This document shows positions 10,723-58,006 of a DNA stretch of 64,000 nucleotides, piece after piece. Within the stretch, counting starts at the first letter, position 1. Each line of letters starts with the position of its first letter. This DNA is from CBDBIG01 sp965205845 [NCBI: bacterium] (lineage in GTDB: Bacteria > SAR324): contig CBDBIG010000002.1 in assembly GCA_965205845.1 (NCBI GenBank), positions 186,001 to 250,000 of the forward strand. The letters run 5' to 3'. A program made the translations under genes and the position numbers. The notes below the pieces were generated by a model. The model was given only the letters and a program-made list of their open reading frames with translations, was not told the origin of the DNA and did not search any database.

Positions 10723-13476
10723 TCAGTTAGGAAGGTTGACCTTTTTAGGTATGTTAGAGCGTGCAGCATTCTCCATTCCCAGTTGTCCCCCGCTGTTATC
10801 TCCCCAACAATACACTGCTCCCTGGGCCGTCATGACGCAGGTATGGCGTTTCCCCGAAGAAATGCCAACGATTTGGTCTAAAATCTTCACGCAGGTGGGT
10901 TTTGCGCCATCAGAAAATCTACTGCCATTTGGGTTCTGATCATCTATGCATATATGTCGGTTCTTCGTCACACGACTAGAAATAAGAATGGCTTGCTCTG
11001 AAATCTCTATTTCAACAGGAAACGCATGCGTAACACTTGCAGATTGAGTCCCAAAGCCCTGTCTACGCCCCCAGCACGCAACTCGACCGCTTTCTAACAC
11101 GGCACAGCTGTGTGATTCGCCCGTTGAAACGGCAATCGCCGCCTCCCCTAGGTCTATCTTATTGGGGGTATAAACCCTAACAGGGTTTTCCTGACTAACT
11201 TGAAATGAAGAATTATCACCCCAGCAATAGACATCGCCATTTACTAGGACAGCGCAAGTGTGCTGGTAGCGACTCGCCAAACCCACTGCTAACGAATTAT
11301 CGCCCCAGCAATAGACATCGTTATTTGCTTGTACAGAGCAGGCGGGCTTGAAGCGACTCGTCAAATCCACTGTTTTGGTTGGGGTGCCAAAGCGGATGGT
11401 TCGCACCGCGATTGAAACAGTTCCAGCAGGCGGGCCTAGCTGGCCTCTTGCATTGTCACCCCAGCATTTAACCAAACCAGAAGACAGCAACACACAGCTG
11501 TGATCAGACCCAACAGCAACACTCACCGCCTTTTCACCTACACCCAAATCGATCGCCCGAGGGATGAGAACGTCCATGGGTTGGCCGGCCGTTGCGCCCG
11601 CTTCGCCATAATCGTTTTTTCCCCAGCATCGAAGATCACCGCCAGCTAACACGGCGCAGGTATGATTCGCCCCAGCAAAACTTCTCACCTTGTCTGTGCT
11701 CCCAAGCACATTGGTGTTCCAAGGGACAGGGTGTTTGGCATTACCGTCAGTCTCAGCCACATAGTGACGTACTCCTCCCTCTGGAAATGTAAGATAATCG
11801 ACCCCCAGTTGCCCTCTATCATTTTGTCCCCAGCATTGGCTTTTGCCATTGTCTAAAATAGCGCAGGTATGCCGATGCCCACCCACTACAGAAACAACCC
11901 TAACCCCTTGAGGAACATTGCTCAGCTGAGTTTCACGCCCTGGGGTATAGCGATAGCGATGGTCTGCAATTTTTCTTGAAGATTCATAGACAGGGCCGAC
12001 GTCAGCGCTGGTAATCTTCCCATCACCACTTAAATCGCCTTGGCCCAATTGCCCATGATCATTCCGACCCCAGCAATACAATTTGCCGTTGGTCAACAGG
12101 GCACAGGTATGGTTCAAACCCGTGTGCAAAGGGTTTAACACACTGGGTATCTCGCGCACCTGAACGCCCAATTGCCCGCGATCATCCCAACCCCAGCAAT
12201 AACTGCGTCCAGCGTCCAAAATAGCACACGCATGGCCTTCACCTGCCGTGATGGATTTGGCAACACTCCCGCTCGGCAGTTCAACGAACCCAGGGCTACC
12301 GTCCACATAATATTGGGAGGTGTCGCGCCCCAGTTGCTCGCGGTGGTTCGCCCCCCAGCACCCTACTCGGCCATCGGTCCGTAACACACACACAAAATCT
12401 TTGCCCGCAGCAATTTTGTTGGCACCACTGGCAACAATCGTATTGGTTTGTGCGTCATCAACATCGGCCGTAGCATTCCCTAACACCTTCAGATGATTCC
12501 GCCCCCAGCAAGCGGCAGAACCCCCCTGAAATATTCCACAGGTAAAATGATGTCCCGCGGCAACTTCCGTTAATCCAGCGGGAAACAGTGCACTCGAATG
12601 ATTCGCATCCAAAATCCGTGGGATGGCGGCGTTGCCTATCCCCAGCTCGCCATAGTGGTTGCGCCCCCAGCATCGGGTGATGGCTGGCAATGTGCCACTA
12701 TTGACAATGGCGCAGGTAACATGGGTGCCCAAAGCGACTTTTTCAACATTGGATAACACCCTTCTTGGGGCGAGTTGGTCGTCTAAGCTACCCAAACCCA
12801 ACGCACCCGCACTACCGCGTCCCCAGCAATACAAATCATTATCAATCATAATCGCGCAGGCATGTTCATCCCCCGCTGCAACTGAAGAAATAATAAAGTT
12901 ATGAGGAAGCACTCTTTGGGGCGTACGTCGATCACTGGTGTCCCCTAAGCCCAGTTGGCCTCGGGAATTTGAACCCCAGCAATACAAACTCGCATCATCA
13001 AGCACGGCGCACGTAAAATCTTTCCCCGTAGATACAAAGGTTGCCGTTCTATTCCTTGGCAGGTTCGCCGCAACATTACCTGAATGGACCAAGGTATCCC
13101 CCACCCCCAGTTGCCCTCTTGTATTCCTGCCCCAGCAACGCAGCACACCAGTATCCAAAATCCCGCAGGTATGCTTGCCAGCAGCACTTAGTTGCTTGTA
13201 GACATAGGTCGTACCACCCACTGCCAAATGGCCTAAACGCGTGTTGAGCAAAGCGGTCGGTTTCCGCCCTGCTTCACCTGCAATACTCCCTCTCAACGAG
13301 AAAGGTGCTTGGGGACTAGGAGGTGGTGGCGCAATGACCGCAGGCGGCGCAGTGGTTGAAAAATCACCTGCATCAGAGGACGTGGCGCTCTGACCACCGC
13401 CATCGGTGCAACCAACCAGCGCAATTAGCACCAGCGTGAGAATAAAACTCACATAACCCGCTTTTAGATTAAACAT
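10723..13476 (-). CDS. Large RCC1-repeat lipoprotein
   Basis: A 917-residue predicted lipoprotein. The N-terminus has a hydrophobic signal ending in the lipobox LVGC, followed by a short Gly/Ser/Pro-rich linker. The rest is a chain of RCC1-like repeats of the form HTCAxL..G...CWGxNxxGQLG. I count 15 CWG motifs, enough for about two seven-bladed propellers. Most blades carry a Cys pair (HTC and CWG), suggesting disulfides and an exported location. I chose the ATG at 13474-13476, which directly precedes the signal sequence and follows GAGGGAA; the open frame extends to 13548. No catalytic motif is visible. Function unknown; a surface-binding role is a guess from the fold. A related fragment lies at 57.7-58.0 kb. 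Confidence 0.87.
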   Translation of the reverse strand: MFNLKAGYVSFILTLVLIALVGCTDGGGQSATSSDAGDFSTTAPPAVIAPPPPSPQAPFSLRGSIAGEAGRKPTALLNTRLGHLAVGGTTYVYKQLSAAGKHTCGILDTGVLRCWGRNTRGQLGVGDTLVHSGNVAANLPRNRTATFVSTGKDFTCAVLDDASLYCWGSNSRGQLGLGDTSDRRTPQRVLPHNFIISSVAAGDEHACAIMIDNDLYCWGRGSAGALGLGSLDDQLAPRRVLSNVEKVALGTHVTCAIVNSGTLPAITRCWGRNHYGELGIGNAAIPRILDANHSSALFPAGLTEVAAGHHFTCGIFQGGSAACWGRNHLKVLGNATADVDDAQTNTIVASGANKIAAGKDFVCVLRTDGRVGCWGANHREQLGRDTSQYYVDGSPGFVELPSGSVAKSITAGEGHACAILDAGRSYCWGWDDRGQLGVQVREIPSVLNPLHTGLNHTCALLTNGKLYCWGRNDHGQLGQGDLSGDGKITSADVGPVYESSRKIADHRYRYTPGRETQLSNVPQGVRVVSVVGGHRHTCAILDNGKSQCWGQNDRGQLGVDYLTFPEGGVRHYVAETDGNAKHPVPWNTNVLGSTDKVRSFAGANHTCAVLAGGDLRCWGKNDYGEAGATAGQPMDVLIPRAIDLGVGEKAVSVAVGSDHSCVLLSSGLVKCWGDNARGQLGPPAGTVSIAVRTIRFGTPTKTVDLTSRFKPACSVQANNDVYCWGDNSLAVGLASRYQHTCAVLVNGDVYCWGDNSSFQVSQENPVRVYTPNKIDLGEAAIAVSTGESHSCAVLESGRVACWGRRQGFGTQSASVTHAFPVEIEISEQAILISSRVTKNRHICIDDQNPNGSRFSDGAKPTCVKILDQIVGISSGKRHTCVMTAQGAVYCWGDNSGGQLGMENAARSNIPKKVNLPN

Positions 13477-13683
13477 TTCCCTCGATTCTCCCTTGCTAGA
13501 TTGCTTGCACGGACAACAACCCGTGCAGGCGTACGCCATAGGAAACACGCCTTAAAAGTATGTAGTGACTAATGTCCACAAGTCACAGCGTAGCGTATTT
13601 CCTACCGCAACGGAAGACCATTTCACCAAATCCGAGGCGGGCCAAGTCATTTCATGCTTAAAATCAATGCTATACGTTAAAAT

Positions 13684-21465: not shown

Positions 21466-22361
21466 CTACCAACCCAGCCTGCTTGTGTTTCTGTAATTGT
21501 TCAGCCTTCTCAACATGATTTTACAGTAAATAGGATCCGTATCTACAACATAACAGCGTCTGTTTAAACTTTCTGCTGCAATCAGCAGTGGTGCCAGAAT
21601 GGCCAAAAAAATCAAGCACCAACCCACCTTCTAAAGAGCTGGCCGCGAGGATTCTTTCAATGGCTTTGAGCGGCTTTTGGGCATAGCATCCGCTCACGTT
21701 TTCTTGCATGCGATAAAACACTTGCTGGATATAGACCCAAACATTTCCAGGTCGAATGTTTGGAGATTTGCTTCGGCCTAAGTTTTCCGTTTGCCGACCA
21801 TTAATCTCCTTGTAGTATCCGCGAAGAATTTTGGGAATGTCCGTGTACTGGACGTGGAACTCTGGCCGTCCTTTCACGTAAAAGAGACATTCATGGTGGA
21901 CAGCCATCCAGTTTTTGGGCGTGCCGTAACCACGTTGGTTGCGCATCGTAATCAACGAGCGAGAGGTAAACTCCTTAAAATCGCACATCAACAGCATGAA
22001 ATCAGGCAAAGGTTGAAAGCCATTTTTTTTGATCTGCCCCTAACCAAACATACAATGAAGCATTTTGTTTGAGCGCAGATGCGGTGATGGCGACCCACTG
22101 CTTACACCAAGACACAAAGTCGGCGAGTTCTTTTACTCCAAATGCTACGTGATTGTAAGGGGGATCATGAATCGCCAAATCCGCTTGTTCTCCATTCATC
22201 AAAGAGGTGATCCACGTGTGGTCAGTCGCATCACCGCAGGCTATTTTGTGCCCTAAGAGAGGGTCCTCCCATATTTCCCCTGTCTGGAAACGGCAATAAG
22301 GCAGCAATTGACGCCTTATCTCATCGTGTTTGTCTAAGGCTGGCAGGGGGTCGTTTTTCAT
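21466..22361 (-). pseudogene. DNA N4/N6-methyltransferase, two frameshifts
   Basis: The first segment (from the ATG at 22359-22361) has ACGDATD and the catalytic HDPPYN motif. The second has a VLDFFGHSGTT SAM-binding motif, in the order of a beta-class methyltransferase. The first break is at an 8-base A run at about 22023-22030; with seven As the frame would read on. The second is just after SGTT near 21570, where a shift restores AAESLNRRCYVVDTDP and runs to a stop at 21466. In the intact state the protein would have about 298 residues. It is the modification partner of the broken nuclease downstream. Confidence 0.8.
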
Positions 22362-23765: not shown

Positions 23766-25157
23766 CTAGGGGGTTTTTGAAAACTTGTCGGGCACGAAAT
23801 TCTTTTTTCTTCGTCCATTTTGTTTGGGTTTGTGACGCCACACACTCCCAATTATTTTTTGCAAACCTTCGACCGCACCGCCAATCAAAGGCTCCAAGGT
23901 TCTTAAATCACGGGGAGACACCCAGCGTGCATCAGCAACCTCGTAGGGGTTAAGAGACCAAGGGCCGCACGCTTCAATTTCAACCCATACCAATACAAAA
24001 TGCCCGCTATGACTCGTGGTGGCACCCAACACATGCAACGGTGTGCCTGTTAAACCAACCTCTTCTTGCAGTTCGCGCACTGCGCCCTCCCCCGAACTTT
24101 CGCCTGCATCCAGTTCACCCCCTGGCAAACCCCATAGCCCAGGAGCACGCACATGCTGACTGCGTTTAATAAACAACACGTGTTCACCTTGGCGCACCAA
24201 AGCCAGCGCACCCTTGGGTTTATGAAATTGCTTGCGCAAGCGATAGGGCTTATTGTTTCCTACGGGGAGTTGCTGTAAAAATTGATGGCGCTTAATCACG
24301 CGCTCCCTATCATAGATACCATTGGATTCAAACAATTCAGGAAGTTCAGGCAATTCAAAGTGCTCGAAACCACCATTTTGAATGGCATGTTCAAGGCTTT
24401 CTTCAATTTGGCGGATCGCTTTGTACGCTCGCTGGGTCTGCTCGGGGGTAAATTTGTTACGCTTTGAGGAAGAAGCTTTGCGCAACAGGCGGGTGAAGGA
24501 GCATACATGGTTGAAGTAGTCAATTTCGTCCATGCGAAAGTCCTTTAAAATGTCTTCATTCCATTGGGCTTGAATGTCGAGCAGGCTACGCACATCTTGA
24601 TGCAAATATCCCATAATGCGTGAGGGAATGATTTTTGTGCTGTCTTTGTTTTCAATGAGAGCGGTCAGCATATAACTTACCTGGCGTGAGGTAACGCTCT
24701 CCTTACGCTCAATCCCAAAAAGGATTTCAAGGCGTTTTAAGGATATGTTATCTCTGAATGTCGACTGGTAAAACATCCGCTTTAAATCGAGATGGGGCAT
24801 GCTTAAGGGGCGTGCGTGTTCCAAACTAATGCCATAGTGTTCCACGCGGTTTCTTAGCCAAAGGAGGTCGTTGTCGGCACCCGCAAAGGTGAGCAAACAT
24901 GCTTTGGGTTGGATGCTTTGAAATTTTGCAAGGCTGCTCAGTGTCCAACGCACCAAGGCTTCTTCTTCCTCGCGGTTGGCAATGCTGCCAATGGCCCCCA
25001 CAATCGACTTTGTCGTGGGATCGTAGCGTTCAAGCCCTACCATGCAAATGACGGGAGCCTTGTTGCGGAATGAGTTGGCCATTTCAAGGTCAAGAGCCAT
25101 CCATTGCCCACTTAAGTCGGATCGTTGTACGGCTTGGTTTAATTTTTTGATGTCCAT
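23766..25157 (-). CDS. YprB-like DEDD exonuclease fused to a Nudix hydrolase
   Basis: A 463-residue two-domain protein. The N-terminal half has the RNase H-like exonuclease pattern ALDLE (Asp23, Glu25), LLTFAGADND, HLDLKRMF, SLKRLEILFGIER and YLHQD (the Y-x3-D of DEDDy enzymes), like the YprB family. A helical linker follows. From about residue 310 there is a Nudix domain, with the box GELDAGESSGEGAVRELQEEVG matching the Nudix consensus. The Nudix part looks like the MutT/NUDT1 type that cleans or decaps nucleotides. I start at the ATG at 25155-25157; a GTG four codons upstream is possible. The fusion is not one I recognise. No partner genes adjoin it. Confidence 0.85.
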   Translation of the reverse strand: MDIKKLNQAVQRSDLSGQWMALDLEMANSFRNKAPVICMVGLERYDPTTKSIVGAIGSIANREEEEALVRWTLSSLAKFQSIQPKACLLTFAGADNDLLWLRNRVEHYGISLEHARPLSMPHLDLKRMFYQSTFRDNISLKRLEILFGIERKESVTSRQVSYMLTALIENKDSTKIIPSRIMGYLHQDVRSLLDIQAQWNEDILKDFRMDEIDYFNHVCSFTRLLRKASSSKRNKFTPEQTQRAYKAIRQIEESLEHAIQNGGFEHFELPELPELFESNGIYDRERVIKRHQFLQQLPVGNNKPYRLRKQFHKPKGALALVRQGEHVLFIKRSQHVRAPGLWGLPGGELDAGESSGEGAVRELQEEVGLTGTPLHVLGATTSHSGHFVLVWVEIEACGPWSLNPYEVADARWVSPRDLRTLEPLIGGAVEGLQKIIGSVWRHKPKQNGRRKKNFVPDKFSKTP

Positions 25158-25472: not shown

Positions 25473-26345
25473 TTGTGGATGAATGCCCAACCCACCCCCT
25501 ACGTTCAAGAAATATCCGAAGCCAATTTTCAAGACGATGTGCTCCAGCGTTCCACCCAAACCCCTGTGGTGGTCGATTTTTGGGCACCTTGGTGTGGCCC
25601 TTGTCAGGTCATTGGCCCTGTGTTGGAAAAATTGGCCGCAGAATACGACGGGCGGTTTTATCTTGCAAAGGTTAATGTGGAGGAAAACCAACAACTGGCT
25701 GCCATGATGCAAATTCAAAGCATTCCAGCGATTAAACTGTTTAAGGGTGGAGAACTGGTAGATGAGTTTATGGGAGCCTTGCCCGAGGCCGATGTCCGCC
25801 GCTTTTTAAACCAACACCTGCCTTCCTTAGCGGATGTCGGCGCAGAGGATGCTTTAGACCTTTGGATAGAAGGAAAAAAAACCGAAGCAGTAGCAATATT
25901 TGAGAGCGTTTTGGAAGAAGATGCACAAAACCCCGCCGCCTTAATCGGCATGGCTTTGCATGCCTTTGATGGAGGAGATTTGGAGAAGGCAAAAGATACA
26001 GCCAGTTTGGTGAACGAAGTGGCTTTGGAAAAACGAGCCCAACACCCACAGCTTGAGCGGATGCTCAACATGCTTAAAGCACAAATTGAATTACATGCAA
26101 TTGTGAACGAAGCCAATCCCAGTCATGAAGCGCTTGACAAAATCTATCGTCAAGCATGTACCAATGCGCTGGCTGGCGACTTTGACGCAGCCTTGGAAGC
26201 TTTGTTAAACATGGTAAAAAGCAACCGCACGTTCCGTAAAGATGGTGCACGGCGCATGATGGTAACCATGTTTGGCATGATGCCACCCCAAGATCCGCGT
26301 ATTTACGCTTGGCGTGGCAAACTTTCTAGTGTGCTATTTCGTTAG
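25473..26345 (+). CDS. cnoX: Thioredoxin-TPR protein, CnoX/YbbN-like
   Basis: A 290-residue protein with an N-terminal thioredoxin domain (WAPWCGPC active site at about residues 38-45, cis-Pro in IPAIKLFKGG). A C-terminal helical region follows, with TPR-like repeats such as AVAIFESVLEEDAQNPAALIG. In E. coli CnoX works with GroEL as a chaperone-redoxin. There the active site is SxxC, while here the full CGPC suggests real disulfide reductase ability, as in other bacterial CnoX proteins. Both domains are intact and the length is typical. Confidence 0.88.
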   Translation: MWMNAQPTPYVQEISEANFQDDVLQRSTQTPVVVDFWAPWCGPCQVIGPVLEKLAAEYDGRFYLAKVNVEENQQLAAMMQIQSIPAIKLFKGGELVDEFMGALPEADVRRFLNQHLPSLADVGAEDALDLWIEGKKTEAVAIFESVLEEDAQNPAALIGMALHAFDGGDLEKAKDTASLVNEVALEKRAQHPQLERMLNMLKAQIELHAIVNEANPSHEALDKIYRQACTNALAGDFDAALEALLNMVKSNRTFRKDGARRMMVTMFGMMPPQDPRIYAWRGKLSSVLFR

Positions 26346-26832: not shown

Positions 26833-27432
26833 CTATTGGGGGAGATCTGCTTTGGAGTGAATAATGGCATCCACCAAACCATAGTCCAAGGCTTCCTCCG
26901 CGGTCATCCAATGATCGCGATCAATGTCCCTAATTATATCTTCTTTCTTGCGTCCAGTATATTCAGCATACAACTTCACAATGCGCTCACGCTCAAGCAA
27001 CATCTCTCTGGCCTGAATTTCCAATTCGACCGCACGCCCTTGGTAGCCCATCAGCAGGGGTTGATGAATAAGAAAACGTGCATGGGGCAGACAAAAACGC
27101 CTGCCTTTGGTAGCGGCCAAGGCAATCACAGAACCCATGCTTGCTGCCAAGCCCACCACCAAGGTAGAAACGGGAGCACCAATAAACTGCATCGCATCAA
27201 AAATGGCAAAGCCAGAGTATACCTCACCCCCGGGGGAGTTAATGAGCATGGTAATGGGCTTGTTAGAATCAGCATGGTCAAGCAAAATGAGCTGTTGCAA
27301 TGTTTTGCGTACCAAATCTCCATCCACTGCACCCGATACAATGAGCATGCGCGAGGATAAAAGCCGCGAAAGCATGCCACTTTCTTCGGCGGCGGTGTCT
27401 TCAGATTTTTTCCCCTGCTCCATGGTTGGCAA
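26833..27432 (-). CDS. clpP: ATP-dependent Clp protease proteolytic subunit
   Basis: A 199-residue ClpP serine peptidase. The catalytic Ser lies in GLAASMGSVIA, the His in FLIHQPL, and the Asp in DIDRDHWM, with the INSPGGEVYSG oxyanion block upstream. A TTG at 27430-27432 has AAGGA six bases upstream and is likely the start; an ATG three codons later is the alternative. It follows rplL, where most bacteria have rpoB. A terminator lies between rplL and clpP, so it probably has its own promoter in the 27433-27538 gap. Its partner clpX is at 2.1-3.4 kb. Confidence 0.96.
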   Translation of the reverse strand: MPTMEQGKKSEDTAAEESGMLSRLLSSRMLIVSGAVDGDLVRKTLQQLILLDHADSNKPITMLINSPGGEVYSGFAIFDAMQFIGAPVSTLVVGLAASMGSVIALAATKGRRFCLPHARFLIHQPLLMGYQGRAVELEIQAREMLLERERIVKLYAEYTGRKKEDIIRDIDRDHWMTAEEALDYGLVDAIIHSKADLPQ

Positions 27433-27537
27433 TTCTCATCCTTTCTCAGCACCTTGTCCATCATGTCAAAACACCCTCCCGTTGTACAAAAAGGGGCAAG
27501 AAATAGGAGTGTTGATGGTTGTAATAAATGGGTTTAT

Positions 27538-27575
27538 TGCAAAAAAATAAAGGGGTGCCATCTCCCATCACCCCC
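27538..27575 (-). terminator. Rho-independent terminator after rplL
   Basis: Read on the minus strand, GGGGTG pairs with CACCCC (27552-27557 and 27569-27574). It is followed at once by a T-rich run (TTTATTTTTTT). It starts a few bases after the rplL stop and should end the secE-to-rplL transcript before clpP. Confidence 0.8.
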
Positions 27576-27580
27576 TAGCA

Positions 27581-27964
27581 CTACTTCACCTCTACTTTCG
27601 CCCCTACGGCTTCTAATTTCTTTTTAATTTCTTCTGCTTCTTCTTTGGCAATCCCTTCTTTAATATTGTTGGGTGCGCCTTCTACAAAGTCTTTGGCTTC
27701 TTTTAAGCCCAACCCCGTAAGGGCACGCACTTCTTTAATCACGTGAATTTTTTTATCGCCTACAACGGCCAGTACCACGGTAAACTCCGTTTTTTCACCG
27801 CCTGCTGCCTCACCACCATCGCCCGCCACCACCGCTGCCGGTGCTGCCATCGAGGCTGCACTCACCCCAAATTTTTCTTCAAGATCTTTCACCAAATCAG
27901 AGAGTTCCAATACGGACATATTAGAAATAAATTCAATTACTTGGTCTTTGGATACATCTGCCAT
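27581..27964 (-). CDS. rplL: 50S ribosomal protein L7/L12
   Basis: A 127-residue stalk protein that recruits translation GTPases. The N-terminal dimerisation helix region, the Ala/Gly-rich hinge ([15 protein letters not shown]) and the C-terminal domain with EFTVVL...[25 protein letters not shown] are complete. The open frame extends to 27997. The ATG at 27962-27964 (MADVSKDQ) has an AAGGAA site upstream and fits the family length. Confidence 0.97.
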
Positions 27965-28061
27965 TGTTGTTTGTTTCCTTATTTGCTTATCAAACAAAAA
28001 GCGATTCTATGTTTGAGTTCAGTGTTTAAAAAATGGTTCCACGATTCACACATCGTCATTC

Positions 28062-28592
28062 TTATGCCGACTTTTTCTCTTGCACGGCAGCCAATACGCG
28101 CACCAAACGTGCAGGGGCATCACTTAATGCCGCTACCAGTTGGGTTTGTGGTGCCCTCATCAAGCCAAGCAATTTTGCCAGTAATTCTTCGCGAGAAGGC
28201 AGTTTACTCAGCGCATCCATTTGCTGTGCATCTAGCAAGGTGCTTTCCCCTTTGGAGACCAGCACCGCTGCAATAAACCTTATCTTTTCTTCTTTGTCTT
28301 TCATAAAAGAGGCAAAATTTTTGGCGACACCCACAGGATCTGCCCCATAAATCAAGGTGCGTTGCTCTTTTAAGTGTTCTGCCAATGCTTGAAAGGAGGT
28401 ATGTTCAATGGCGCGTTTGCTTAAGCGGTTGTGCAATACCCGCACTTTGGCGTTGACGGTGTTCATGCTTTTACGCAAGAGCGTCGTCTGTGCCACACTC
28501 ACGCCTGTGGCATGAAAGAGCACGCCGACAGCGGCCTGCTCAAACACCTCGCGCATTTGCACGATCAGTTCTTCTTTTTGTGTACGTTTCAT
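28062..28592 (-). CDS. rplJ: 50S ribosomal protein L10
   Basis: A 176-residue L10, which anchors L7/L12 dimers to the ribosome. VLHNRLSKRAIEH-type RNA-binding sequence, YGADPVGVAKNFASFMKD and the C-terminal helix for L7/L12 (ending VLAAVQEKKSA) are present. It is the first gene after an unusually long 638-base gap following rplA, where a leader that L10 itself can bind would be expected. Confidence 0.96.
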   Translation of the reverse strand: MKRTQKEELIVQMREVFEQAAVGVLFHATGVSVAQTTLLRKSMNTVNAKVRVLHNRLSKRAIEHTSFQALAEHLKEQRTLIYGADPVGVAKNFASFMKDKEEKIRFIAAVLVSKGESTLLDAQQMDALSKLPSREELLAKLLGLMRAPQTQLVAALSDAPARLVRVLAAVQEKKSA

Positions 28593-29230
28593 AAACGGTT
28601 TTATGTTTTAAAGGGTTGGTGAATCACTACTACGGCGTTATCGGTTATCGCAGCATGTTTGGCTGCCACGGTTGAATATTACCGCCAAGGCTTGCCCGCA
28701 ACACAGCACGTTCATTGGCTATACTGCGCATCTGAGCAAGGCACAAAAATGCCCTTTACCAAAGGCGTGTGCCTATCCGTGTGTGTTTGTCACAAAATAA
28801 AGGCGTTCGAAAAGGCGGGCGCCTCTCAACGAGAAGCACTAACTTGGGAGGGAGACCACATGATTGCAATCCATTTCCTATTAAAACCCTTTTCAAGGCA
28901 GTCCACCGAGCAAGCCATGCTTATCACGGTCACTCACTTACCAAAAAATAGACAACAAAGCCTTTTTTTCCCAGCATACGCTAAGGGCTGTATTTTTGAT
29001 GTACAGCACAAAAAGGCCTCATTTTGATGCAAGTAATGTTTCCGTCTCAAGCAGGGTTTTTGTGTTTAAGCTCCAAAGGCATCACGATGCCTGCAAAAGA
29101 GCCCCGACTGTCTACGACTTGATGATTAAGCAAAGCAAATCAACATGCTTGTACGTGATTACAATAGGCAAATAGCTTTCATGAACAACATCTGCGAAAC
29201 CCTCACAACTAGCACTGAATGGGTTCATTT
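28593..29230. other. Long rplA-rplJ spacer, probable rplJ leader
   Basis: No protein gene is supported in these 638 bases. On the minus strand it is the 5' leader of rplJL, a position where many bacteria have an L10-binding autoregulatory RNA. Short dyads are visible, for example AGGCAT/ATGCCT at 29077-29092 and GCTGTA/TACAGC at about 28987-29007. I cannot fold the whole leader by eye, so the regulatory role is inferred from position. Confidence 0.4.
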
Positions 29231-29917
29231 TTAAGTTAGAGCTGTGGGTTCAAGCGCAATTCCTGGGCCCATGGTGGAACTCAAGGCGATTTTTTGCATA
29301 TAAACCCCCTTTGCCGAGGCGGGGCGCAAGCGTTTTACCACTTCCACCACGGCAAGGATATTTTCTTTTAGTTTGGATTCATCAAAGGAGGCACGCCCGA
29401 CGGGAGCGTGCAACACTCCCGCCTTATCCACGCGAAATTCCACTTGCCCTTTTTTAATGTTCCCAATCGCCTTGCCCACCTCGGTGGTAACACTACCCGT
29501 GCGTGGGTTTGGCATCAGGCCTCGCGGGCCAAGTACCTTCCCCACCTTACTGACCATAGCCATCATATCGGGTGTGGCCACGACGCGATCAAACTCGAGC
29601 CAGCCTGCTTGAATTTTGGCAATCATGTCTTCCGCACCCACATCGTCGGCACCTGCTTGTTTGGCTTCGGCTGTTTTTTCACCTTTCACCAGGGCAAGAA
29701 CACGCACGGGCTTGCCAACCCCATGGGGCAAATCGACCACCCCGCGCACCAACTGCTCCGCTTTGCGTGGGTCAACCCCCAGATTAAACGCAATATCGAC
29801 GCTCTCGTCAAATTTGGCAGAAGCGGTCTTCTTCACCACCTGCACCGCTTCACCCAAATTGGTAGGTTTTTTTTCCAACAATTCTTTCCATGCCCGCTCT
29901 CGCCTTGTTTTTTTCAT
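29231..29917 (-). CDS. rplA: 50S ribosomal protein L1
   Basis: A 228-residue L1, the stalk protein near the E site and an autoregulator of its operon in E. coli. [33 protein letters not shown] sequence and the following [17 protein letters not shown] block are diagnostic. The ATG is at 29915-29917. The gap from rplK is 219 bases rather than the usual few bases. Confidence 0.97.
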
Positions 29918-46303: not shown

Positions 46304-46927
46304 ATGTCCGATACCCACGACCATGATAATCACCATAGCCATCTTCCCGCCGACCCCGAGCTTCGGGTGAAGGCATTGGAGACGTTGCTCGTTGAGAAAG
46401 GGCTCATTGACCCCGCTGCCATTGATGTAATTATTGAAACCTACCAGCACAAAGTGGGCCCACGAAACGGTGCTGCAGTGGTGGCAAAAGCGTGGTGCGA
46501 TGCCCAATTTAAGGCGCACTTACTACAAAATGGCGATGCAGCGGTTTCCGAAATGGGCTTTGGAGGCAGGCAGGGCGAGCACATTGTGGTGGTAGAAAAC
46601 ACGCCAAGCGTGCACCACATGGTCGTTTGCACCTTGTGCAGTTGCTATCCATGGCCCTTGTTGGGCGTGCCTCCTGCCTGGTATAAATCGGATGCCTACA
46701 GGGCCAGAGCCGTGCGCGATCCAAGGGGTGTTCTCCTCGAATTTGGCGTGCACATCCCAAAATCGACTGAGATTCGTGTTTTGGATTCTACGGCCGAGAT
46801 CCGCTATTTGGTATTGCCACAACGTCCTGCTGGGAGCGAAAACCTTTCTCAAAACCAGTTGGCTCCTTTGGTAACGCGCAATGCCATGATTGGCACTGGT
46901 GTGGTGGAAATGCCTGCCACACCTTAA
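46304..46927 (+). CDS. nthA: Nitrile hydratase alpha subunit, cobalt type
   Basis: A 207-residue metal-binding subunit that, with the beta subunit, hydrates nitriles to amides. The claw motif VCTLCSCY has Thr between the first two Cys, as in cobalt enzymes; iron enzymes have Ser there. Conserved Arg-containing sequence [16 protein letters not shown] follows. The N-terminus is His-rich ([10 protein letters not shown]), possibly useful in metal handling. It is followed by beta subunit and accessory genes in the usual order. Confidence 0.94.
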
Positions 46928-47003
46928 AATCAACTTGCCTTCCCCTTTTTAAACTTAAAAGCAGATTCGTTTTCCACCCCTAACCATAGCGAGGATTTGC
47001 CAT

Positions 47004-47687
47004 TTGAGCCGGATTCATGACATGGGAGGCATGCATGGTTTTGGTGCTATTCCCTTCTTAGAAGATAACGAAAAAGCGTTGTTTCACCATGCATGGGAAG
47101 CACGTGCCCTCGCCATTACCGTAGCAGTAGGTGGGCTGGGACAATGGAACCTCGACATGTCACGCCATTCGCGTGAGCGCTTACCCGCCCAGGACTATTT
47201 GCAGTTTGGCTATTATGAGCGATGGTTGGCTGCCTTGACCAATTTGCTGGTTGAGCACCAACTTCTTAACCCAGAAGAGCTCCGCACGGGATGCGCTCAA
47301 AGGGAGAAAAATCCCAAGATCATTCCCCTTATGGGCGAGCGTGTCTGCGCTGCACTGGCAAAGGGAGGACCTACCAATCGCCGCATTCGCCAAAAGCCAC
47401 GCTATACAGTGGGCAGTCAGGTAAGAACCCACAGCCATTCGCCAAACCAAAGTGTGGTGGGTGGGCACACACGTTTGCCGCGCTATGCCATGGGATGTCA
47501 GGGGACAATCATCCGTTGCCATGGTCCCCACGTGCTCCCAGACAAAAATGCCCATGGACTGGGCGAAGCACCCGAGCATCTTTATACCGTACAGTTTACT
47601 ACCCAAGCCCTTTGGGGTAAGCAGTGCACAGAAAAAAACACCTTTCATCTCGATTTGTGGGAGTCCTATTTTGAGCCAGTCAAATAA
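47004..47687 (+). CDS. nthB: Nitrile hydratase beta subunit
   Basis: A 227-residue beta subunit. The N-terminus MSRIHDMGGMHGFG is the family signature. It starts at a TTG at 47004-47006 with GAGGA about eight bases upstream. The C-terminal SH3-like barrel (RYAMGCQGTIIRCHGPHVLPD and a later HLYTVQFTTQALWG) is complete. It forms the alpha-beta heterodimer with NthA. Its end overlaps the accessory gene start by 17 bases. Confidence 0.93.
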   Translation: MSRIHDMGGMHGFGAIPFLEDNEKALFHHAWEARALAITVAVGGLGQWNLDMSRHSRERLPAQDYLQFGYYERWLAALTNLLVEHQLLNPEELRTGCAQREKNPKIIPLMGERVCAALAKGGPTNRRIRQKPRYTVGSQVRTHSHSPNQSVVGGHTRLPRYAMGCQGTIIRCHGPHVLPDKNAHGLGEAPEHLYTVQFTTQALWGKQCTEKNTFHLDLWESYFEPVK

Positions 47688-57691: not shown

Positions 57692-58006
57692 TTACCAAAG
57701 CCCGGACTCGAGGAGCTTGCCATTGCCCACTTGGCCTTTGTTGTTTTCCCTCCAGCAATACACAGTGGTTGCCTCACCAACCGCGGCACAGGTGTGAGTT
57801 TGGCTTGAAGATGCGATGCGGACATCGTTTAAAAAGCCCGTTCCACTGGGGGGCCATACCTTGCCAGGCGGTACTGGCGGCGGCATCACCAAAACCCCGC
57901 CTTGCATCACCCTTTGATCCCCTCGACCCAAATACCCGCCGCTTGTGCGTGTGTAAGTTTCGCCAGTACCCCAGGTTACCATGGTGCCATCTTGCATTAG
58001 CACCAC
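57692..58006 (-). pseudogene. Fragment of an RCC1-repeat protein
   Basis: About 100 residues with RCC1-type features: VLMQDGTMVTWG at the start, THTCAAV, then VYCWRENNKGQVGNG. These match the repeat unit of the large lipoprotein at 10.7-13.5 kb. There is no signal peptide, and the frame stops after less than two blades. Sequence just beyond the stop, in other frames, still looks repeat-like. This is the remnant of a second RCC1 gene, next to the larA-family gene. Confidence 0.65.

What the first reader, a model, noticed from the sequence alone, without database searches (positions are those of the whole stretch)
23766..25157. DEDD exonuclease fused to a Nudix hydrolase
An N-terminal YprB-like 3'-5' exonuclease with all expected acidic residues and a Y-x3-D motif is joined by a helical linker to a C-terminal domain with a perfect Nudix box. 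Such a fusion could trim nucleic acid and then hydrolyse the released damaged nucleotide, or decap RNA and then degrade it. I do not recognise it as a characterised architecture.
Basis: partly seen in the sequence, partly recalled or inferred. Interest (0 to 1): 0.6.

Follow-up and report, generated by a model that had tools for sequence, protein, structure and literature searches.

The report
Exonuclease–Nudix fusion enzyme in SAR324
A single bacterial protein joins a DNA-trimming type of exonuclease to a nucleotide-cleaning (Nudix) enzyme, and it is kept with both active sites intact in one branch of the marine SAR324 bacteria, which hints at a two-in-one genome-care enzyme whose activities have not been measured as far as I could find.

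Summary
The ORF at 23766-25157 (- strand, 463 aa) has an N-terminal RNase_H_2 DEDDy exonuclease domain and a C-terminal Nudix domain with a perfect Nudix box. It is no artefact: 10 of 52 SAR324 genomes carry full-length, single-frame orthologues, 38-42% identical to it. Twelve checked active-site positions are invariant in all 11 proteins. In a ClpX tree the window and the 8 fusion genomes that could be placed form one clade (96/90), with none of 38 other SAR324 genomes inside; the tree needs one change, a gain or a gain-and-loss at the base. No full-length relative turned up in the samples searched outside SAR324. The exonuclease half has a family-B polymerase proofreading fold (Z 17.0) and is nearest by profile to MrfB-like exonucleases, but the fusion genomes lack the MrfA helicase (0 of 10). 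The Nudix half is MutT/NudG-like, below all curated cut-offs. Best reading: a bifunctional 3'-5' exonuclease/(d)NTP pyrophosphatase for nucleotide fidelity; activities and substrates are inferred. A new architecture of two known enzyme kinds.

The parts
23766..25157 (-). DEDDy exonuclease-Nudix fusion gene, 463 aa plus stop
24561..25109 (-). exonuclease domain (residues 17-199), RNase_H_2 / family-B polymerase proofreading exonuclease fold
   Evidence: PF13482, 37-199; 5mdn, Z 17.2 and 17.0, model residues 17/18-199
25083..25091 (-). Exo I motif D23-L-E25
   Evidence: D and E invariant in 11 of 11; on strand 19-27 of the model
24867..24869 (-). Exo II aspartate D97
   Evidence: invariant in 11 of 11; in helix 93-108
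24786..24788 (-). D124 of a DLK/DLR motif shared with MrfB-like proteins
   Evidence: invariant in 11 of 11; aligned with IDLR of SAR324 MrfB-like proteins
24594..24608 (-). Exo III motif Y184-x3-D188 (DEDDy type)
   Evidence: invariant in 11 of 11; in helix 179-198
24225..24560 (-). helical linker, residues 200-311, the least conserved of the three parts
   Evidence: helices; 6 of 112 columns invariant, against 43 of 183 in the exonuclease part and 38 of 130 in the Nudix part
23835..24224 (-). Nudix domain, residues 312-441
   Evidence: PF00293, 315-420; 3ees BdRppH, Z 16.3, 312-441
24051..24119 (-). Nudix box, residues 347-369
   Evidence: sequence; G347, E353, R361, E362, E365, E366 invariant in 11 of 11
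25473..26345 (+). divergent neighbour: thioredoxin-TPR gene (CnoX/YbbN-like, name recalled)
   Evidence: PF00085 + TPR_20; head-to-head with the fusion gene in 8 of 10 orthologue loci

Best explanation
It is a bifunctional housekeeping enzyme of one SAR324 clade. The N-terminal half is a metal-dependent DEDDy 3'-5' exonuclease related to MrfB/YprB, most likely acting on DNA 3' ends and releasing 5'-NMPs. The C-terminal half is a MutT/NudG-like Nudix pyrophosphatase that most likely cleaves damaged or non-canonical (d)NTPs to monophosphates. The two halves would work on different substrates toward the same end: keeping bad nucleotides out of the pool and removing them (or damaged 3' ends) from the polymer. 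Shown: one gene, both domains, intact active-site residues, predicted folds, and conservation in one clade on the ClpX tree. Inferred: catalytic activity, DNA rather than RNA as polymer, (d)NTP rather than capped RNA as Nudix substrate, and functional coupling.
For: Fusion in 10 of 52 SAR324 genomes, each as one frame. Active-site positions invariant in 11 of 11 at 38-60% pairwise identity, and dN below dS in the six closest pairs. Exonuclease half: Z 17.0, 162 residues, 2.8 A to 5mdn, and the 50 rows shown are all family-B polymerases (archaeal, viral, Pol II, alpha, epsilon); MrfB is a 3'-5' DNA exonuclease whose own nearest folds include archaeal PolB exonucleases (PMC11194089, passages); hhalign to SAR324 MrfB-like proteins 92% probability, E=5.1e-7. 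Nudix half: the commonest curated matches are PRK08999, Nud_hyd_Dein and PRK10546 (NudG, name recalled) with 11 of 11 members each, and MutT with 9 of 11, against at most 7 of 11 for any one RppH model; the best PDB sequence match of the window protein alone is a MutT (4v14, E=1.5e-8). In 5 of 10 fusion genomes the best MutT-model match in the genome is the fusion's own Nudix domain. Neighbours that I could name are housekeeping genes.
Against: No assay was found. With the family profile the best PDB match of the Nudix half is an RNA pyrophosphohydrolase, BdRppH (E=3.7e-11), which also ties with MutT enzymes by fold. MutT and NudG scores are far below the curated cut-offs: 34.7 against 148 and 36.1 against 156 bits. 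MutT over the cut-off is rare throughout SAR324 (1 of 52), so the fusion does not visibly replace it. A yprB null of B. subtilis showed no mutator phenotype (PMC5627055, passages). I recognised no replication or repair gene next to it.
Confidence: 0.5

Rival explanations
1. An RNA-decay enzyme: the Nudix half removes 5' pyrophosphate or a nucleotide cap (RppH/NudC-like) and the DEDDy half degrades RNA or short oligoribonucleotides from the 3' end (NrnC/RNase D-like).
For: Top PDB match of the family profile is BdRppH; fold tie with BdRppH, Z 16.2-16.3; one RppH-type NCBIfam model matches 7 of 11 members. DEDDy exoribonucleases exist (NrnC/RNase D, PMC11194089 passages).
Against: MutT/NudG-type models score better on the window protein and match more members. 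The 50 fold rows shown for the exonuclease half are all family-B polymerases, the profile link is to MrfB-like proteins, and exosome component 10 and Rrp6 appear only at E 0.76-0.95.
Confidence: 0.25
2. One half is a binding or regulatory module: the Nudix domain senses a nucleotide or alarmone and controls the exonuclease (or the reverse), so that only one half is a working enzyme in the cell.
For: Some Nudix-clan domains serve in protein interaction and regulation (PMC5389931, abstract start, passage). The two domains sit in one chain on a poorly conserved linker.
Against: Active-site residues of both halves are invariant in 11 of 11, which a pure sensor would not need.
Confidence: 0.15
3. 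A free-standing MrfB-type mitomycin-repair exonuclease with an unrelated Nudix passenger.
For: Profile similarity to MrfB-like proteins.
Against: No MrfA-type helicase domain (PF09369) in the 10 fusion genomes, while 6 of 52 SAR324 genomes have it, each beside a strong RNase_H_2 match. No TPR match in the 11 proteins. The Nudix part is at least as conserved as the exonuclease part.
Confidence: 0.08

Closest known systems
MrfB/YprB (COG3359, RNase_H_2) mitomycin C repair exonuclease of B. subtilis
   Same: RNase_H_2 domain, DEDD catalytic set, family-B polymerase-like exonuclease fold; hhalign 92% to SAR324 MrfB-like proteins
   Different: Tyr in place of His258 (the SAR324 MrfB-like proteins aligned also have Tyr); no TPR match; Nudix domain instead; no MrfA-type helicase domain found in the fusion genomes
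Family-B DNA polymerase proofreading exonuclease domain
   Same: Fold (Z 17.0 to 5mdn) and DEDDy residues
   Different: No polymerase domain among the Pfam matches; exonuclease joined to Nudix
MutT / NudG / PRK08999 Nudix hydrolases
   Same: Nudix fold and box; among the most frequent curated matches
   Different: The window protein is below their curated cut-offs; fused to an exonuclease
BdRppH RNA pyrophosphohydrolase
   Same: Nudix fold, Z 16.3, 21% identity
   Different: Chains of 131-153 residues without an exonuclease; RppH equivalog models far below the cut-off (25.9 against 139 bits)
DUF429-NUDIX proteins (RNase H-like superfamily, clade D)
   Same: Another RNase H-like fold protein that sometimes co-occurs with a Nudix domain (PMC3985635, passage)
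   Different: Different clade of the superfamily; in the passages I read, the 3'-5' exonuclease families are not listed with Nudix

Membership tests
RNase_H_2 (PF13482) DEDD exonucleases | Score above the curated Pfam cut-off | tested here: met
   41.5 against 22 bits for the window protein; 11 of 11 members match at E<=0.1
RNase_H_2 (PF13482) DEDD exonucleases | D-x-E, D, D plus Tyr or His activator | tested here: met
   D23, E25, D97, Y184, D188 invariant in 11 of 11
RNase_H_2 (PF13482) DEDD exonucleases | 3'-5' exonuclease activity | not testable with these tools
   needs purified protein
MrfB/YprB | DEDDh (His four residues before the last Asp) | tested here: not met
   Tyr184 in 11 of 11; B. 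subtilis MrfB has His258/Asp262. SAR324 MrfB-like proteins have Tyr too, so this feature may not define the wider family
MrfB/YprB | C-terminal TPR domain | tested here: not met
   no TPR family among the Pfam matches of 11 members at E<=0.1; the linker is helical
MrfB/YprB | partner MrfA helicase in the genome | tested here: not met
   PF09369 in 0 of 10 fusion genomes and 6 of 52 SAR324 genomes overall; the genomes may be incomplete and the window's own genome is not held
Nudix hydrolases | Nudix box G-x5-E-x7-R-E-U-x-E-E-x-G-U and Nudix fold | tested here: met
MutT (TIGR00586 / PRK10776) | Score above the curated cut-off | tested here: not met
   30.7 against 97.9 and 34.7 against 148 bits
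RppH (PRK00714) | Score above the curated cut-off | tested here: not met
   best 25.9 against 139 bits
Anti-phage defence system component | Match to a defence model covering the architecture, or a defence neighbourhood | tested here: inconclusive
   only the Nudix part matches one PADLOC candidate model, PDC-S07, E=2.4e-12; the neighbours I named are housekeeping, but only ten proteins, chosen by me, were scanned with Pfam

The most novel reading that the evidence does not exclude
SAR324 has evolved one polypeptide that unites the two arms of nucleotide fidelity, sanitation of the dNTP pool (MutT-like) and exonucleolytic removal from DNA 3' ends (proofreading-like), as a fixed housekeeping enzyme of a whole clade, possibly tied to oxidative stress through the divergently transcribed thioredoxin-TPR gene.
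Probability: 0.35. Interest if true: 0.65.

Novelty: new variant of a known kind. Interest (0 to 1): 0.42.

Why it matters
Pool sanitation and proofreading are normally done by separate proteins. A clade-wide natural fusion of a MrfB/PolB-type exonuclease with a MutT-like Nudix domain would suggest that the two steps benefit from being tethered, and gives a compact protein in which that can be tested. It also adds a domain context to the sparsely characterised RNase_H_2 exonucleases.

Tried and rejected
Sequencing error joining two genes: rejected, because 10 orthologues are each a single frame.

Exonuclease-only or split forms in SAR324: searched with the exonuclease-half alignment A2; the same 10 of 52 genomes ring and all are fusions.

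Wider spread with the exonuclease half: 0 of 398 genomes in the phylum of G058, an Alphaproteobacteria MAG; 2 of 296 in the phylum of G056, a Bacteroidetes MAG, weak and partial; 1 of 299 in the phylum of G057, a Clostridiales MAG, weak and partial. L160 and L162 were read: their ORFs of 233 and 395 aa show no Nudix box by eye. L161 was not inspected. Of 383 relatives of G002, the same 10 plus 4 partial matches that I did not inspect. The sets may overlap, and only the 6 to 8 best first-look candidates of a genome were scored, so weak relatives may be missed. One search warns that an empty answer shows nothing without a control, and the ten known genomes found again, are that control. Six single genomes of other phyla searched with the whole-protein alignment gave Nudix-region matches only. 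No phylum-wide set was searched for Desulfobacterota, Myxococcota or Archaea, so the fusion may exist there.

The single-protein scan of genome contigs found nothing although orthologue-bearing genomes are in that collection (G002 and G003 come from it), so it missed known relatives and counts for nothing; the viral-contig scan with the exonuclease half used similar patterns and counts for little. The family alignment in viral contigs: 53 stretches matched a pattern, none confirmed. Plasmids: 29 records, none with 80% coverage; the 20 rows listed match only the Nudix part. Phages: no match to the exonuclease half. Early attempts to name the organism by phage and viral searches led nowhere.

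PF10108-type (DNA_pol_B_exo2) origin of the exonuclease half: Pfam gives weak matches in 7 of 11 members, but profile comparison with six SAR324 proteins that I take to be of that type (not run against Pfam) gave 0.6% probability, against 92% for MrfB-like ones.

Defence role: one Nudix-only PADLOC candidate hit and no defence gene recognised nearby, so not pursued. MutT replacement: only 1 of 52 genomes passes the MutT cut-off, so its absence from the fusion clade says little.

ClpX tree limits: 48 of 52 genomes had a match at E<=1e-60; I left out G006 (split over two contigs) and G030 (truncated); G009, G018, G019 and G024 had none. So 8 of 10 fusion genomes and 38 of 42 others are in the tree. 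The window has a long branch (0.4), the three outgroups are ClpX genes from viral contigs, and the fusion clade comes out as sister to all other SAR324 (that sister group has only 86/57 support), so a gain before the split with one loss is as possible as a later gain.

MrfB's crystal structure is not among the 50 rows shown; that is no test of kinship.

Papers: 8 searches; only the listed top rows were seen where more papers matched, and read RNase_H_2 as RNaseH2. Passages only were read of PMC5389931, PMC3985635, PMC5627055 and PMC12458937 (a preprint); abstract, outline and passages of PMC11194089. SAR324 with Nudix: no paper.

Full report
What is there. Pfam finds RNase_H_2 at residues 37-199 (E=1.8e-10) and NUDIX at 315-420 (E=8.2e-19), both above their curated cut-offs.

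Where it comes from. No genome is held for the window. A scan with the neighbouring ClpP gave as best matches, at 50-61% identity, MAGs titled SAR324, Lambdaproteobacteria, Deltaproteobacteria or Proteobacteria. G002 (titled Deltaproteobacteria) lies in one phylum with G001, G003, G004 and G005, all four titled SAR324; I therefore call that phylum SAR324, since the search itself names no phylum. Two loci from fusion-bearing genomes (L031, L057) share the window's order rplA-rplJ-rplL-clpP.

Orthologues. Among 52 genomes of that phylum held here, 10 have a full-length match; 47 of 52 have some match, and the rows listed other than those ten cover only the region from about residue 276 on, that is the Nudix half. 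The exonuclease-half alignment finds the same 10 of 52. Each of the 10 is one open frame through the junction; the stops that one search reports inside 5 of the matches lie past the C-terminus. They are 38-42% identical to the window protein and 43-60% to each other. D23, E25, D97, D124, Y184, D188, G347, E353, R361, E362, E365 and E366 are invariant in 11 of 11; 6 of 112 linker columns are invariant against 43 of 183 in the exonuclease part and 38 of 130 in the Nudix part; dN is below dS in the six closest pairs, although dS is above 1 and therefore rough. Both active sites are thus probably under selection.

One clade. A ClpX tree of 46 SAR324 genomes, the window and 3 outgroups places the window with the 8 fusion genomes that could be included in a single clade (support 96/90); none of the 38 other SAR324 genomes falls inside, and the label needs one change (0 of 500 shuffles as low). 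Since that clade is sister to the rest, the one change may be a gain in it, or an older gain followed by a loss in the sister group. Two fusion genomes, G006 and G009, could not be placed. No full-length relative turned up in the samples outside SAR324, but phyla close to SAR324 were sampled only through the 383-genome 'relatives' set.

The exonuclease half. AlphaFold2 gives pLDDT 90.6 for residues 1-299 and 85.0, pTM 0.78, for the whole protein. The order of strands and helices is that given for DEDD exonucleases in PMC11194089 (passage), with D23/E25 on the first core strand, D97 in helix 93-108 and Y184/D188 in helix 179-198. The nearest solved folds are family-B DNA polymerases, over their exonuclease region (5mdn, Z 17.0, 2.8 A over 162 residues). 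By profile the half is closer to SAR324 MrfB-like proteins (92%, E=5.1e-7) than to six SAR324 proteins that I take to be of the PF10108 type (0.6%). MrfB of B. subtilis is a Mg-dependent 3'-5' DNA exonuclease whose closest folds include archaeal family-B polymerase exonucleases; it is DEDDh, carries a C-terminal TPR domain, and is thought to work with the helicase MrfA (PMC11194089, abstract and passages; yprAB = mrfAB in the preprint PMC12458937, passages). A yprB null of B. subtilis showed no mutator phenotype (PMC5627055, passages), which speaks against a simple proofreading role for that relative. The fusion protein has Tyr instead of His, no TPR match, and its genomes show no MrfA-type helicase domain (0 of 10), whereas 6 of 52 SAR324 genomes, all lacking the fusion, have one beside a strong RNase_H_2 match. 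It is a relative of MrfB, not an MrfB.

The Nudix half. Its fold matches a Nitrosomonas Nudix hydrolase (3cng, Z 16.8), BdRppH (Z 16.3), MutT2 (Z 16.1) and MutT1 (Z 15.9) about equally. Among curated models, PRK08999, Nud_hyd_Dein and PRK10546 match 11 of 11 members, MutT 9 of 11, and the best RppH model 7 of 11; none reaches its cut-off in the window protein. By sequence in the PDB the window protein alone is nearest a MutT (4v14), the family profile nearest BdRppH. In 5 of 10 fusion genomes (G002, G003, G006, G007, G012) the best MutT-model match in the genome is the fusion itself. The substrate cannot be told from this; (d)NTP sanitation is my best guess.

Neighbourhood. The thioredoxin-TPR gene (PF00085 plus TPR_20) lies head-to-head with the fusion gene in 8 of 10 orthologue loci; L168 lacks it and L172 ends near the gene, so it cannot be judged there. 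Other recurring neighbours are cysS-like, AlaX-like (weak PF07973 match in L167) and GlcE-like genes (the cysS name is by my reading of the sequence, the GlcE name by my reading plus PF01565). This looks like a housekeeping setting; I saw no mobile or defence gene directly beside the fusion, although not every neighbour was identified, and a broken DNA methylase lies beyond glcE in the window.

Mechanism. Parallel action on pool and polymer is more plausible. DNA rather than RNA is inferred from the polymerase-like and MrfB-like relationship; the RNA rival (RppH-like plus 3'-5' decay) stays open at about one in four.

Known or new. Among the papers listed by seven searches that bear on it, none was seen to describe this architecture. 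A superfamily survey lists COG3359 (MrfB-type) domains with TPRs and a different RNase H-like family (DUF429) with Nudix, but in the passages I read not this pairing (PMC3985635). I rate it a new variant of known kinds, of moderate interest because a clade-wide fusion with intact active sites is testable at once.

Noticed in passing
window 21521-22361 (-): A DNA methylase gene (PF01555, E=1e-13 for the 162-aa piece; the 119-aa piece has no Pfam match) appears split over two reading frames and lies between the glcE-like and glcF-like genes; it looks like a decayed insertion.
   Followed up: partly
window 26833-29917 (-): rplA-rplJ-rplL is followed by clpP, not rpoB; the same order occurs in L031 and L057 (both from fusion-bearing genomes), while 17 of 19 SAR324-type clpP loci examined show no rplL in the fetched DNA, some of them cut short.
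   Followed up: partly
window 10723-13548 (-) and 57692-58006 (-): A 941-aa protein made largely of RCC1 repeats and, by eye only, a second RCC1-like fragment.
   Followed up: partly
window 46304-47687 (+): Nitrile hydratase alpha and beta subunits.
   Followed up: no
G043, G044, G045, G046, G047, G048: A separate SAR324 group has a MrfA-type helicase domain beside a strong RNase_H_2 match in 6 of the 6 genomes with PF09369; the MrfB-like proteins aligned (five of these six genomes and two others) have Tyr-x3-Asp, not His-x3-Asp.
   Followed up: partly
G006:C146:4590-5267: A ClpX fragment 89% identical to window ClpX residues 1-225, although that genome's fusion protein is only 39% identical to the window's. 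Other genomes' ClpX figures are over the full length, so not like for like.
   Followed up: no
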